A DNA stretch of 50,010 nt, taken from a virus. The position numbers and the translations under genes are program-made. This document shows positions 11,124 through 19,905 of the stretch, one piece after another. The stretch lies in the IMG/VR virus record IMGVR_UViG_3300036846_000769, positions 1-50,010 of that record; one strand, given 5' to 3'. The notes beneath the pieces are model-generated. The model ran no database searches. It had not been told where the DNA came from and worked only from the letters and a program-made list of their open reading frames with translations. The stretch's first letter is position 1, and every line of letters starts with the position of its first letter.

Positions 11124-11195
11124 TTCGACTCTCCTCGGGCGGTTTGCCCGGTCATGCCCACCCCGGTCAGGATGGGCATGGCCAAGCCAACCGGC

Positions 11196-12110
11196 CTAGG
11201 CGGCCATTAGAGCCTCGCTGGCGGGCTCCTCGTCTTCGTCCGCCTCTTCAGCGCTCGCCGCGCCTCGGAGCCACTCCACGGCCTTGCTGGCCGCGCTGGC
11301 GGCCGAAACAATCGCCGTGTCCCGCGCCTCTAGCAGGCTCACCCAAGTCTCGATGTAAGCGGCCGGAGCCTCTTCCATGTCGATGCCGAACTCGGCGCAA
11401 GTGAACGCGCTGCAAAGCTCCGCGATTAGCTCCTCGGCCGCATAGGCGCGATCGCCATACTTGCCCTTCAGATCGCGGTTGAGGCGGTCCTTGTGGCCGG
11501 TCGCGTGGCCCATCTCGTGGAACAGCGTCGAGTAGAAGGCGTGCGAGGATTTGAACGCCTGCAACGAAGGCATCTCGATGCGGTCGAGCGACGGCGCATA
11601 GGCGGCGCGCGAGCCTTGCTCGATCACCTTGATTGCGGTCGCGGCGACGAAGCCCTCAACTAGCGGGTCACGGGCGTTGCGATCGACCGGCAGGCTGGGC
11701 ACCACCGGGTCAAGCAAACGCTGCGGGAGTCCGTCGCACTGCGCGACATTGAACACCGTGTATGAGCGCAGGAATCCGATGCTCTTTTTCTTGCCCGGGT
11801 TTTCCTTGTCGTCCGCAAGGTAGCGCTTCAGGAAGATAATCTGCTCGCCCTTCTCGCCCTTGCGCACGGTCCCGCCAACTTCTTTGGCCTGCTTGAACGT
11901 CAGCCAGCGCGGACCCCAGCCGTTCACTTGCGATGTCCCCCACAGGAGGACAACGTTGACGCCGCTGTAGGGGCGGCCGGAGATGACGTTGCGCGGCATA
12001 ACCTCGCCATGCGCGCTCTTGTATTCGCTCCACGGCTTGCGCCACGGCGCGACGCCGGTCTTCAGTTGGGCAAGAATTTTGGCGGTGATTTCAGCGTGTA
12101 GGTTGCGCAT
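11196..12110 (-). CDS. ardC: ArdC-like antirestriction protein
   Basis: 304 residues. The N-terminal half matches the ArdC ssDNA-binding domain ('GVAPWRKPWSEY', 'GRPYSGVNVVLLW', 'WLTFKQAKEVGGTVRKGEKG'). The C-terminal half is a zincin-like metallopeptidase domain with the HExxH motif 'FHEMGHATGH' (His198, Glu199, His202) and downstream 'YAAEELIAE' supplying the third ligand. Plasmid ArdC protects incoming ssDNA and inhibits some restriction systems. It has its own promoter (12168-12196), leader hairpin and GGAGTCGA element, which suggests early independent expression. The C-terminal tail is acidic and Ala-rich. Confidence 0.9.
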   Translation of the reverse strand: MRNLHAEITAKILAQLKTGVAPWRKPWSEYKSAHGEVMPRNVISGRPYSGVNVVLLWGTSQVNGWGPRWLTFKQAKEVGGTVRKGEKGEQIIFLKRYLADDKENPGKKKSIGFLRSYTVFNVAQCDGLPQRLLDPVVPSLPVDRNARDPLVEGFVAATAIKVIEQGSRAAYAPSLDRIEMPSLQAFKSSHAFYSTLFHEMGHATGHKDRLNRDLKGKYGDRAYAAEELIAELCSAFTCAEFGIDMEEAPAAYIETWVSLLEARDTAIVSAASAASKAVEWLRGAASAEEADEDEEPASEALMAA

Positions 12111-12138: not shown

Positions 12139-12161
12139 CCGGGCGGTTAGGCGCCGCCCGG
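12139..12161 (-). promoter_or_regulatory. 5' leader hairpin of the ArdC gene
   Basis: Perfect 8-bp stem (CCGGGCGG with CCGCCCGG) and a CGCCTAA loop on the minus strand, followed by TCTTTTT. The loop is identical to that at 9454-9474 while the stem differs with pairing kept. The T-run after the stem means it could also act as an attenuator; position next to the promoter favours a 5' stabilising or regulatory structure. Confidence 0.6.
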
Positions 12162-12716: not shown

Positions 12717-12922
12717 CGGTCGATTCCTTCCATGGCGAATCCCATGTCGATAAGATCGCACTTCACTTGCAGCTGGCAGGCCTTGAGTTGCGCTTGCCGC
12801 AGCGAGGCGGATTGCGAGACCTTCCACGGCTGAGCGCCGCATGCGACGCGGTAAACCGCGTAACGGCGCTCGCCCTTGCTCGGGTAGGCGGGATTCAAAT
12901 CCGCGATGTATCGCGTTCTCAC
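12713..12922 (-). CDS. small hypothetical protein
   Basis: 69 residues ('YAVYRVACGAQPWKVSQSAS', then a helix 'RQAQLKACQLQVKCDLIDMG'). ATGA overlaps on both sides. No family recognised. Confidence 0.62.
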   Translation of the reverse strand: MRTRYIADLNPAYPSKGERRYAVYRVACGAQPWKVSQSASLRQAQLKACQLQVKCDLIDMGFAMEGIDR

Positions 12923-13173
12923 GAGCGATCCTCCCAGCGCAGACCCGGGCGAAGCTTCAGGACCGCGCCTTCGAAATGGGCGCGCTCCTCGGCCGAGAGC
13001 GGCTCGTCAGCGGCAGCGTCCGCCACAGTGCGGTAGGCTGTGACAGTCGCGGAGGGCCGCCCCTTGTTCAGTTTGATCTCGGCCCACAAGGCCGCATCGC
13101 TTAGGTTGCCCGACTCCAAGTCGGTCCCCTCGACGCCGTCCAACTCAACGACAAATACAAGCTTGGTTTTCAT
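12919..13173 (-). CDS. small hypothetical protein downstream of ribozyme A
   Basis: 84 residues, short alpha/beta ('KLVFVVELDGVEGTDLES', 'SAEERAHFEGAVLKLRPG'). GGAGTCGA lies 5 bases before the ATG. The leader contains hammerhead ribozyme A, whose cleavage would give this gene and the three coupled genes after it a new 5' end at 13230, 57 bases upstream of the ATG. No family recognised. Confidence 0.68.
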   Translation of the reverse strand: MKTKLVFVVELDGVEGTDLESGNLSDAALWAEIKLNKGRPSATVTAYRTVADAAADEPLSAEERAHFEGAVLKLRPGLRWEDRS

Positions 13174-13202
13174 AGTCTCGACTCCTTCGATTCGCTGGCG
13201 AT

Positions 13203-13260
13203 AGGCTCGTCAGGCGGCGCCTTACGCCGCGACGCTGGAGTCTCCCCCAGCGTTTCGCCT
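13203..13260 (-). ncRNA. type II hammerhead ribozyme A
   Basis: 58 nt on the minus strand. Order: AGGC (stem II 5' strand); GAAA; stem III CGCTGG with CCAGCG, loop GGGAGACT, extended by the A-T pair next to the core; T-C, giving the GTC cleavage triplet; stem I GCGGCG with CGCCGC, loop TAAGG; core CTGACGA; GCCT (stem II 3' strand). All invariant core positions (C3 U4 G5 A6 G8 A9, G12 A13 A14, U16.1, H17) are met. Cleavage is predicted between 13231 and 13230. It lies between the stop of the gene at 13266 and the start of the gene at 13173. Open stem II makes it type II. No alignment or cleavage test was run. Confidence 0.88.
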
Positions 13261-13265
13261 TCAAT

Positions 13266-13649
13266 TCACGGCGCCCGCAGCCGTATCGCGCCATTCGTCC
13301 GCGCTTCTTTCACCGCCTCGCGCACCATGTCGGGGAAGTAGTCCATGAAGCGGATTCCGCGCGCCTTGTTGGCGAGCGTGTTCCGATGCCGCACGCCCGT
13401 CTCGAAATGCGAGGTGCGGAAGGACTCCGTCGAATCATAGCAGCATCCGCCAAGGTGCGATGAGCCGATGATCCCGCCCGATGGCAGGCGCACCGCAACG
13501 CGCGCTTGGAACCATGCGGCGCGATCGGCGAGAACGTCCGCGAGGCTGTGCGGGTCCAGTTCGTCGCGCGGGTCCATGTCCTCGGGCGCGATGTCATAGG
13601 TGACGGTGAAATTGGCGGTCTTGAACGACCAAACTGTCTCATAGCTCAT
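13266..13649 (-). CDS. hypothetical protein between ribozymes A and B
   Basis: 127 residues ('MSYETVWSFKTANFTVTYDI', 'DYFPDMVREAVKEARTNGAI'), no recognised domain. ATG at 13649 is chosen because GGAGTCGAGATC precedes it; the longer in-frame ORF to 13796 would run through ribozyme B and into the next gene. If ribozymes A and B both cut, this becomes a monocistronic mRNA with a hairpin at each end. Confidence 0.68.
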   Translation of the reverse strand: MSYETVWSFKTANFTVTYDIAPEDMDPRDELDPHSLADVLADRAAWFQARVAVRLPSGGIIGSSHLGGCCYDSTESFRTSHFETGVRHRNTLANKARGIRFMDYFPDMVREAVKEARTNGAIRLRAP

Positions 13650-13680
13650 GATCTCGACTCCGTTTGATGGATCTGGCGAT

Positions 13681-13738
13681 AGGCTCGTCAGGCACCGCGT
13701 CACGGTGCGACGCGGGAGTCTCCCCCCGCGTTTCGCCT
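13681..13738 (-). ncRNA. type II hammerhead ribozyme B
   Basis: 58 nt on the minus strand, same order as ribozyme A: AGGC; GAAA; stem III CGCGGG with CCCGCG, loop GGGAGACT; T-C of the GTC triplet; stem I GCACCG with CGGTGC, loop TGACG; core CTGACGA; GCCT. Compared with A, the inner pairs of both stems change on both sides while pairing is kept, which supports an RNA structure. Its first base is the last base of the upstream gene's TAA stop. Cleavage is predicted between 13709 and 13708. Confidence 0.88.
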
Positions 13739-14589
13739 TACAGTCCGAACCGCTCGCGGCAGATGGGACCAATGCCAAGCTCGACCGATTCCGCATTGGT
13801 CAATTCCCGGCCACAGCATGAGCACTGACCCGTGCGACGCCCGTAAGCCACCGCAGCCGCCAGCGGGTCCGCCATCGCCGCCTGCACCGCCTCTGAGGCC
13901 TCGCGCGAGCACTCCCGCGAAGCTTGGAACCGGCCGCCAGCGATCTTGCCCCAGTACTCGCCGTCGAAACCCTTCAGGTAGACCGCGCCAGCGTTCTTGC
14001 CGGTCGCGGGCGCCAGCGAGGCGGAGAACCCGTCAAAGCGCATCACCGGGCGCTTCAGGCCTTTCGCGACCGCAGCGTCGAAGGCGCCCATGAGCTTGTC
14101 GGCCGAAACGACCGGCGCATTGGCCTTGGCCTCCTCACGCGCCTTGCGCGCCGCGTTGCGCTTCTCGACCGCCCGCTCGCAAGCTTCCAGCTGGCGCTCG
14201 GTCAGGTCCCCGAACTTGTCGATCGCCTCCGCCATCGACTCGGCAAACTCAAAGGTGGCGCGGCTCGACTGAATCCACGCCCAAACCTCGGGGTGCGCCT
14301 CGGCGAACCATGTCCGCTGCGCCTCAATGGACTTCGCCTTGCGATCGGCGCGTTGCACGCGAGCCTTCGCCCGCGCCTCGGGCGCCTGCACAAATTCTTT
14401 GAACCCGCGCCCCTTGCACTCGAAGCATTGGCCAAAGTTGCGACCGCTGTAGCCAATGAAGGAACCGCGCCCGTTGCACTTGCGGCACGTCTCGCGGTGC
14501 TTGGTTCCGGAGCGCTCCGGGGTCACAAAGGCGTCTTCGTCATCACGCGCCGGTCCGGCGCTCATCCATGCGGGGTTGTGGAAAGGCAT
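13738..14589 (-). CDS. zinc-finger protein with DnaJ-like and DUF6011 motifs
   Basis: 283 residues. The N-terminus carries 'CRKCNGRGSF' and 'CFECKGRGF', the CxxCxGxG pattern of DnaJ-type zinc fingers. A charged helical region spans about 65-150. The C-terminus 'CSCCGRELTNAESVELGIGP' plus 'ICRERFGL' matches the DUF6011 zinc motif seen in actinophage and other phage proteins. No enzyme signature, so nucleic-acid or protein binding is the likely mode. GGAGTCGAGACA precedes the ATG; ribozyme C lies upstream and ribozyme B starts at the stop codon. Confidence 0.75.
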   Translation of the reverse strand: MPFHNPAWMSAGPARDDEDAFVTPERSGTKHRETCRKCNGRGSFIGYSGRNFGQCFECKGRGFKEFVQAPEARAKARVQRADRKAKSIEAQRTWFAEAHPEVWAWIQSSRATFEFAESMAEAIDKFGDLTERQLEACERAVEKRNAARKAREEAKANAPVVSADKLMGAFDAAVAKGLKRPVMRFDGFSASLAPATGKNAGAVYLKGFDGEYWGKIAGGRFQASRECSREASEAVQAAMADPLAAAVAYGRRTGQCSCCGRELTNAESVELGIGPICRERFGL

Positions 14590-14615
14590 TGTCTCGACTC
14601 CAGTTGCAGATGATT

Positions 14616-14690
14616 AGGCTCATCAGCGGGCGCCTCACGCCCGGACCCCGCGCCAGCGGCCAGAAATGGCCACCGGCCGGGGTTTCGCCT
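14616..14690 (-). ncRNA. type II hammerhead ribozyme C
   Basis: 75 nt on the minus strand. AGGC; GAAA; a long stem III (CCCCG with CGGGG, GCCGG with CTGGC, TGGCC with GGCCG, one bulged G, ATTTCT loop); T-C of the GTC triplet; stem I CGGGCG with CGCCCG, loop TGAGG; the textbook core CTGATGA; GCCT. All invariant hammerhead positions are present. Cleavage is predicted between 14644 and 14643. It begins three bases after the TAG stop of the upstream gene. Confidence 0.9.
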
Positions 14691-14693
14691 TGA

Positions 14694-15260
14694 CTAGGCC
14701 TCGACGCCCTCCCCGAACTTCGCCCGGTGCGCAGCCTCAAGCTTGGCCCACTCGGCGCGCGCCGCCGCCTTCAGGTTGGCGAGCGACTCGAACGACCAAT
14801 CCGAATGGCTGTAGCTGGACGAATCGGACTTGCGCGTCTGGCGCACGTAGAACGTCGCGCCGATCGCCTTCGCCACGGCGCCCAGATAGTCGCCAATCTC
14901 CTCGGAGACCTGAGCCTTGCGAAGCTCGCGCGTGATGCGATCGAACGTCTTCAGCATGCGCTTGCAGTCGCCAGCCTTGACGTAGCTCACGTCTTCGAAC
15001 TCAGCCGGACGAAGGAACGCGCCGCCGGACTTGTAATCGCTGCGGTAGGCGCGGATCACGAGCCCGTGAAGCATGAGCCCGTCAGCCGCCTTGGGCGCGC
15101 CGTAGTAGCTCAACTCGCCATCCAGCGAGGGATTGATCGGGTGCTCGGCGTCGCCCTCGCGCGCCATCACGCGAATGCAGAACGAGTCCGACTCGGCCCA
15201 CTTGTGGCCGGGTTCGATGCGGAAGCCATAGGTGCGGGCAGGCTTGGCAGTGGTATTCAT
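14694..15260 (-). CDS. hypothetical protein, first gene of ribozyme operon
   Basis: 188 residues, alpha/beta, no recognised family. The middle ('GDCKRMLKTFDRITRELRKAQ') is helical and the segment 'SDSSSYSHSDWSFESLANLK' is polar. It is the first gene downstream of the promoter at 15309-15338, with GGAGTCGAACCT before the ATG and a short CCGC/GCGG leader hairpin. Its position suggests it sets the start of the seven-gene transcript that the ribozymes would divide. Confidence 0.7.
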   Translation of the reverse strand: MNTTAKPARTYGFRIEPGHKWAESDSFCIRVMAREGDAEHPINPSLDGELSYYGAPKAADGLMLHGLVIRAYRSDYKSGGAFLRPAEFEDVSYVKAGDCKRMLKTFDRITRELRKAQVSEEIGDYLGAVAKAIGATFYVRQTRKSDSSSYSHSDWSFESLANLKAAARAEWAKLEAAHRAKFGEGVEA

Positions 15261-15526: not shown

Positions 15527-15611
15527 TGGTAGGCGACCGGGGACTCGAACCCCGCTAGCGCAAAGGCACGGCGTTTACAGCGCCACTCGGTCACCTGACC
15601 TGTCGTCGCCC
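15527..15611 (-). tRNA. tRNA-Tyr-like gene (anticodon GTA)
   Basis: 85 nt. The acceptor GGGCGAC pairs with GTCGCCT, followed by A and an encoded CCA. The anticodon arm is TGGCG with CGCCG around CTGTAAA (anticodon GTA). A long variable arm and a T arm CGGGG/CCCCG with TTCGAGT loop follow, all right for bacterial tRNA-Tyr. The D arm is odd: instead of the usual stem around a GG-containing loop there is only GGTC-AGGT-GACC, and positions 8-9 are GA rather than TA. It may be a functional phage variant or a decaying gene. Confidence 0.65.
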
Positions 15612-19829: not shown

Positions 19830-19905
19830 TGGTGGACAGCGATGGAATCGAACCACCGACGCTCGCGCCTTCAACGCGACGCTCTACCGACTGAGCTAGC
19901 TGTCC
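19830..19905 (-). tRNA. tRNA-Phe (anticodon GAA)
   Basis: 76 nt with a full cloverleaf. Acceptor GGACAGC/GCTGTCC then A and encoded CCA; D stem GCTC/GAGC; anticodon arm TCGCG/CGCGA around TTGAAGG (anticodon GAA); T arm GGTGG/CCATC with TTCGATT loop. It starts on the base after the endolysin stop codon, so it must be processed out of the endolysin mRNA or be made from a promoter inside that gene. Confidence 0.93.

What the first reader, a model, noticed from the sequence alone, without database searches (positions are those of the whole stretch)
13203..14690. Three tandem type II hammerhead ribozymes split one operon
Each of three consecutive intergenic gaps on the minus strand (13203-13260, 13681-13738, 14616-14690) contains, in order, a GGC/GCC stem II, GAAA, stem III, a GTC triplet, stem I and CTGA(C/T)GA. 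These are all the invariant core bases of a hammerhead with an open stem II. Stem bases differ between copies with pairing kept in both stem I (GCGGCG/CGCCGC, GCACCG/CGGTGC, CGGGCG/CGCCCG) and stem III (CGCTGG/CCAGCG, CGCGGG/CCCGCG, and a long CCCCG-based helix). Hammerheads are known in bacteria and phages, but three in a row between consecutive protein genes is unusual. The sequence shows the motif; cleavage is inferred.
Basis: partly seen in the sequence, partly recalled or inferred. Interest (0 to 1): 0.97.

Follow-up and report, generated by a model that had tools for sequence, protein, structure and literature searches.

The report
Tandem phage hammerheads with core-complementary tails
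A phage operon carries three self-cutting RNA elements (hammerhead ribozymes), one in each of three consecutive gaps between genes; that layout has been known since 2011, but comparing hundreds of relatives shows that about a quarter of this compact subtype is followed by a short tail complementary to the ribozyme's own catalytic centre, a feature I found no description of and which could lock or switch the cut.

Summary
Three complete type II hammerhead motifs lie on the minus strand at exactly the given coordinates, and they are the only three in the 50-kb phage contig; simulated sequence gave none. The reading as hammerheads is well supported: in 590 unique viral pattern hits that did not require stem pairing, 511 have both stems, with all four Watson-Crick pairs at every stem I position.

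"Three in a row is unusual" is not supported. Perreault et al. 2011 described clustered hammerheads in prophages, including a triple in Agrobacterium that cleaves in vitro and in E. coli. I found 66 viral loci with three or more copies.

New here: phage type II hammerheads split into the known pseudoknotted subtype and a compact subtype without it, to which the window's copies belong. In the compact subtype the tail just after stem II is often the reverse complement of the catalytic CUGANGA box (108/459 against 23.5 in shuffles, confirmed in two held-out sets), and N7 covaries with its partner. This hairpin cannot coexist with the active ribozyme and would form in the downstream cleavage product. 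The window's copies carry 6-of-7 versions, individually weak (P 0.02-0.14). Cleavage and function remain inferred.

The parts
14616..14690 (-). Hammerhead copy 3: stem II AGGC/GCCT, GAAA, long stem III, GTC, stem I CGGGCG/CGCCCG with loop TGAGG, core CTGATGA; predicted cut between 14644 and 14643
   Evidence: Rfam RF02276 26.4 bits, below cut-off
13681..13738 (-). Hammerhead copy 2: stem III CGCGGG/CCCGCG, stem I GCACCG/CGGTGC with loop TGACG, core CTGACGA; predicted cut between 13709 and 13708; the upstream stop codon TAA overlaps the first base of stem II
13203..13260 (-). Hammerhead copy 1: stem III CGCTGG/CCAGCG, stem I GCGGCG/CGCCGC with loop TAAGG, core CTGACGA; predicted cut between 13231 and 13230
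   Evidence: RF02276 25.5 bits, E 1.3e-4
14607..14613 (-). Core-complementary tail of copy 3, TCATCTG (6 of 7 pairs with CTGATGA)
   Evidence: shuffle P 0.14, weak alone
13673..13679 (-). Core-complementary tail of copy 2, TCGCCAG (6 of 7 pairs with CTGACGA)
   Evidence: shuffle P 0.024
13195..13201 (-). Core-complementary tail of copy 1, TCGCCAG (6 of 7 pairs with CTGACGA)
   Evidence: shuffle P 0.038
14694..15260 (-). Gene A, 188 aa, unknown; a homologue (51%) in relative L023 sits directly behind a hammerhead
13738..14589 (-). Gene B, 283 aa, DUF6011 domain at C-terminus, phrog_4046, between copies 3 and 2
13266..13649 (-). Gene C, 127 aa, unknown, between copies 2 and 1
12919..13173 (-). 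Gene D, 84 aa, unknown, downstream of copy 1
11196..12110 (-). ArdC-type anti-restriction protein, downstream in the same direction; also near the hammerhead clusters of six relatives

Best explanation
Each of the three gaps encodes a compact type II hammerhead ribozyme that cuts the operon RNA just 3' of its GTC. This gives separate mRNAs for genes A, B, C and D (D with whatever lies downstream): the upstream piece ends in the stem III hairpin with a 2',3'-cyclic phosphate, and the downstream piece begins with the stem I hairpin and a 5'-OH. The 7-nt tail after stem II is complementary to the catalytic CUGANGA box. Once the cut releases the GAAA strand, CUGANGA and the tail close into a hairpin next to stem I. 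This would stop religation and leave the downstream mRNA with two adjacent hairpins at its 5' end, just before the ribosome-binding site. Shown: motif, gene context, stem covariation and, across relatives, tail-core covariation. Inferred: cleavage, product locking and any effect on mRNA stability or translation. From established hammerhead chemistry: the end groups.
For: Complete core in all three copies, none in simulated sequence. In viral contigs 511 of 590 unique pattern hits, chosen without regard to stem pairing, have both stems, against 17 of 92 in bacterial genomes; all four Watson-Crick pairs occur at every stem I position. Of 198 hammerheads 107 have both an upstream stop and a downstream start in place, against 75 of 990 control positions; 157 of 159 multi-copy viral loci have all copies on one strand. 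Published precedent: clustered copies cleave in vitro and in E. coli. Anti-core tail: 46 of 152 against 7.1 (max 14) in the first held-out set, 48 of 259 against 14.2 (max 24) in a second set with other stem II sequences, no enrichment in the pseudoknotted subtype. N7-partner covariation P 5e-8 and 1e-3 in the held-out sets. Of 12 ribozyme segments only CUGANGA and the segment overlapping it are clearly complemented by the tail. The hairpin is in the predicted product fold of 96 of 108 elements and of all three window copies.
Against: No RNA was assayed. The window's tails each carry one mismatch and are individually close to chance (P 0.14, 0.024, 0.038), and copies 1 and 2 share theirs. About three quarters of compact hammerheads lack a clear anti-core tail, and several close relatives have too short a leader for one, so it is optional. 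The same hairpin could form before cleavage and block it. Rfam scores are below the gathering cut-off.
Confidence: 0.7

Rival explanations
1. The tail is a pre-cleavage off-switch. It pairs with CUGANGA in uncut RNA and holds the ribozyme inactive unless it is taken up by something, for example a 30S subunit binding at the downstream start. A ribosome at the upstream stop codon, which overlaps or nearly abuts stem II, would act the opposite way. Cutting would then report translation.
For: Anti-core secondary structure is more stable than the active one in 87 of 108 elements, median -2.6 kcal/mol, and is in the full-length minimum-energy fold of 89. Stop codons cluster at the first base of stem II and start codons lie 20-30 nt after it.
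Against: Energies ignore the tertiary contacts of the active fold and cotranscriptional order (ribozyme first). No ribosome effect has been measured. In window copies 1 and 2 the predicted full-length fold instead pairs GGCGA with UCGCC, a pairing not enriched in relatives.
Confidence: 0.3
2. The hammerheads are ordinary and the tail complementarity is a by-product of replication-templated (quasi-palindrome) mutation, with no function.
For: Templated mutation turns imperfect into perfect inverted repeats and would mimic covariation at N7; the element is optional.
Against: It is absent from the pseudoknotted subtype with the same CUGANGA box, it sits at a preferred position, and of 12 segments only CUGANGA and the segment overlapping it are clearly complemented.
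Confidence: 0.2
3. The window's copies are decayed or very slow ribozymes that now act only as intercistronic hairpins.
For: Sub-threshold Rfam score; alternative folds predicted to outcompete stem II.
Against: All invariant core bases are intact in all three copies and stems vary with pairing kept; relatives with about 80% identical terminase keep intact copies.
Confidence: 0.1
4. Pairs of hammerheads excise gene-length pieces with 5'-OH and 2',3'-cyclic phosphate ends that are ligated into circular mRNAs.
For: The ends expected from hammerhead cleavage are RtcB substrates (established chemistry); tandem same-strand layout.
Against: Perreault et al. looked for circular or spliced products and did not detect them; no evidence here.
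Confidence: 0.07

Closest known systems
Clustered hammerheads in prophages, including the Agrobacterium tumefaciens triple (Perreault et al. 2011, PMC3088659)
   Same: Several hammerheads, often type II, flank single genes of a phage operon; an anti-restriction gene is nearby (ardA there, ArdC here); long RNAs proposed to be cut into single-gene mRNAs.
   Different: Another phage and other genes; all three copies here are of the compact subtype. No core-complementary tail is mentioned in the text passages read.
Rfam RF02276 Hammerhead_II
   Same: Same circular permutation, same core, stem II open.
   Different: Rfam and the 2011 consensus favour a pseudoknot between loop I and the tail. The compact subtype shows none above chance (43 of 220 against 46 in shuffles; 101 of 109 against 59 in the long-stem-I subtype) and has a 4-bp stem II flanked on the 5' side by a near-invariant A.
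Transcription attenuators and riboswitch expression platforms (general knowledge)
   Same: Two mutually exclusive hairpins sharing one strand.
   Different: The shared strand is the catalytic box of a ribozyme; no ligand, leader peptide or terminator is seen.

Membership tests
Type II hammerhead ribozyme | Core CUGANGA, GAAA and cleavage triplet NUH in type II order | tested here: met
   CTGATGA or CTGACGA, GAAA, GTC in all three
Type II hammerhead ribozyme | Stems I, II and III paired, stem II open-ended | tested here: met
   (4 bp stem II, 7 bp stem I counting a closing U-G pair, 5-8 bp stem III); stems kept with changed bases among copies and relatives
Type II hammerhead ribozyme | Score at or above the Rfam RF02276 gathering cut-off (37 bits) | tested here: not met
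   25.5 and 26.4 bits; a diagnostic rather than a defining property, but the member-by-model claim is lowered
Type II hammerhead ribozyme | Self-cleavage 3' of H17 depending on the core | not testable with these tools
   needs a transcription and cleavage assay
Pseudoknotted type II subtype (2011 consensus) | At least 4 bp between loop I and the tail, above chance | tested here: not met
   compact subtype as a whole at chance level; loop I of the window is the 5-nt TRASG
Tandem phage hammerhead cluster | Several same-strand hammerheads in consecutive intergenic gaps of a phage operon | tested here: met
   related phages L023, L191, L194, L252, L059 likewise carry several
Compact hammerhead with anti-core tail (proposed here) | At least 5 contiguous pairs from C3 of CUGANGA to the tail | tested here: not met
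   window copies have 6 of 7 pairs with an internal mismatch; relative L023 has contiguous 6-7 bp in all three copies fetched

The most novel reading that the evidence does not exclude
Many phage type II hammerheads are two-state devices. A tail complementary to the catalytic box, coevolving with the variable core base N7, competes with the active fold, so that cutting of the operon RNA is locked after or gated before cleavage, perhaps by ribosomes at the abutting stop and start codons. The window's operon carries three such elements in slightly degenerate form.
Probability: 0.45. Interest if true: 0.8.

Novelty: new variant of a known kind. Interest (0 to 1): 0.6.

Why it matters
What bacterial and phage hammerheads are for is still described as an open question. 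A core-complementary tail that coevolves with the ribozyme core is a concrete, mutable handle on it: breaking the tail and restoring it through N7 would show directly whether cutting in phage operons is locked, timed or regulated. It also shows that the Rfam type II model scores the window's compact copies below its cut-off, so such ribozymes may be undercounted.

Tried and rejected
Loop I-tail pseudoknot in the compact subtype: at chance. A tail complementary to GGC-GAAA, as in the predicted full-length folds of window copies 1 and 2: not enriched in relatives. Anti-core tail in hammerheads of bacterial genome contigs: 1 of 15, no enrichment. A fourth hammerhead at the CTGACGAGCC near 13010: no GAAA or stems. 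Other Rfam ribozyme families in the window: none at E up to 5. DNA similarity to named phages: only a DUF6011 stretch in Pseudomonas phages; nearest named terminase 43%. A sigma-70 consensus scan upstream found nothing. Literature searches for a core-complementary tail or a tandem-processing study found only the 2011 paper and reviews; most subscription journals are not held, so absence is not proof.

Full report
OBSERVATION. The window is a whole IMG/VR phage record of 50,010 bases. A full scan of both strands finds these three and no other; 40 first-order Markov versions of the window gave none. All three sit between same-strand genes A (188 aa), B (DUF6011), C and D, with stop codons ending at -3, +1 and -5 relative to stem II (copies 3, 2, 1) and start codons 26-31 nt after it. 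Rfam's type II model hits with 25.5-26.4 bits, below its cut-off of 37.

IDENTITY. I fetched viral loci by patterns that specify the core and 3 bp of stem II but no stem I or stem III pairing. Of 590 unique viral hits, 511 have both stem I (5 bp or more) and stem III (4 bp or more), against 17 of 92 hits of the same kind in bacterial genome contigs; all four Watson-Crick pairs occur at every stem I position. So the motif is a real structured RNA, heavily concentrated in phages. Viral loci with several copies: 159, of which 66 have three to eight; 157 of the 159 have all copies on one strand; median spacing 695 nt. Of 198 elements, 107 have an upstream stop and a downstream start in place, against 75 of 990 control positions.

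RELATIVES. Phages with terminases 81-84% identical (L023, L252, L119, L191, L158) and further ones with related ArdC (L194, L059, L103) carry hammerheads in the same region, up to four per record. The genes behind the hammerheads differ from phage to phage: gene A of the window has no hammerhead before it, whereas its homologue in L023 does. The hammerhead is kept while the gene cargo changes.

KNOWN KIND. Perreault et al. 2011 described type II hammerheads, clusters flanking single genes in prophages, the triple in A. tumefaciens that cleaves in vitro and in E. coli, and proposed processing into single-gene mRNAs. A 2017 review and a 2023 paper repeat the association with phages and call the function open. 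The triple as such is therefore a new member of a known kind.

TWO SUBTYPES. The fetched elements split by the length of stem I plus loop. The long form (20-26 nt) shows the published loop I-tail pseudoknot (101 of 109 with 4 bp or more, shuffles 59). The compact form (16-19 nt) does not (43 of 220, shuffles 46). Compact elements have a 4-bp stem II (397 of 459) flanked on the 5' side by A, and a loop I starting with U (433 of 459). The window's copies are compact, which probably explains the low Rfam score.

ANTI-CORE TAIL. In the exploratory set I noticed that compact tails resemble UCRUCAG, the reverse complement of CUGAYGA. I wrote the hypothesis down before fetching new loci. The helix measure was refined once; a cruder measure on the first held-out set already showed the excess, and the refined one was fixed before the second held-out set was fetched. 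Contiguous pairing of at least 5 bp from C3 of the core to the tail: exploratory 24 of 72 (shuffle mean 2.6, max 8); first held-out set 46 of 152 (7.1, max 14); second held-out set, other stem II sequences, 48 of 259 (14.2, max 24); long form 6 of 109 (5.6). After clustering at 65% identity: 73 of 328 against 17.7 (shuffles, max 29) or 22.2 (dinucleotide model, max 38). With the register chosen on C3-A6 only, the partner of N7 follows N7: C with G 35 and A 3, T with A 58 and G 11 (Fisher P 4e-15 overall, 5e-8 and 1e-3 in the held-out sets). These P values treat elements as independent, which they are not entirely; but 12 loci hold copies with different N7, most of them with the matching partner. 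Of 12 ribozyme segments only CUGANGA (127 against 43) and the segment overlapping it are clearly complemented by the tail.

MECHANISM. The hairpin uses the catalytic box and loops out the stem II strand, so it excludes the active fold. By secondary-structure energy it is the more stable in 87 of 108 cases (median -2.6 kcal/mol), and it is in the predicted fold of the downstream product in 96. Two readings follow: a product lock that forms after cleavage, or a pre-cleavage switch. I favour the lock, because the ribozyme is transcribed first and the hairpin uses only bases of the downstream product; the energies do not exclude the switch. All function is inferred.

THE WINDOW'S OWN TAILS. Copies 1 and 2 read CTGACGA-gccta-TCGCCAG, copy 3 CTGATGA-gcctaa-TCATCTG, each 6 of 7 pairs with one internal mismatch. 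The predicted fold of each downstream product contains this hairpin, but per-copy shuffle P values are 0.038, 0.024 and 0.14, so the window alone would not have proved it, and the copies do not meet the 5-contiguous-pair criterion. In relative L023 the three copies fetched have contiguous 6-7 bp; other relatives have shorter leaders without it. The tail is an optional module.

VERDICT. Three genuine compact type II hammerheads in a known layout, with a statistically strong and, as far as I could search, undescribed second module in their subtype. Cleavage in this phage and the role of the module are untested.

Noticed in passing
window 12139-12161, minus strand: Perfect 8-bp GC hairpin followed by TCTTTTT, terminator-like, in the leader between a small gene and ArdC, shortly after a TTGACA; it could be an attenuator of ArdC.
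   Followed up: partly
window 11133-11200: Long imperfect inverted repeat (31-nt arms, 77% complementary) right after the ArdC gene.
   Followed up: no
window 15527-15611 and 19830-19905, minus strand: Two tRNA genes, Tyr(gta) and Phe(gaa); the Tyr gene lies upstream of the hammerhead operon.
   Followed up: partly
L023, L191, L194, L252, L059, L103: Related phages keep hammerheads beside ArdC while the genes behind the hammerheads are exchanged, as if the ribozymes mark a cassette region.
   Followed up: partly
L307, L353, L365, L348 (three Synergistaceae MAGs and a Fretibacterium MAG): Compact type II hammerheads in bacterial MAG contigs, with TTGACA or a TTGA(A/C)A-like promoter box roughly 10-25 nt after stem II.
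   Followed up: no
L613: Eight type II hammerheads in about 3.2 kb of one viral locus, with terminase-like sequence just upstream.
   Followed up: no
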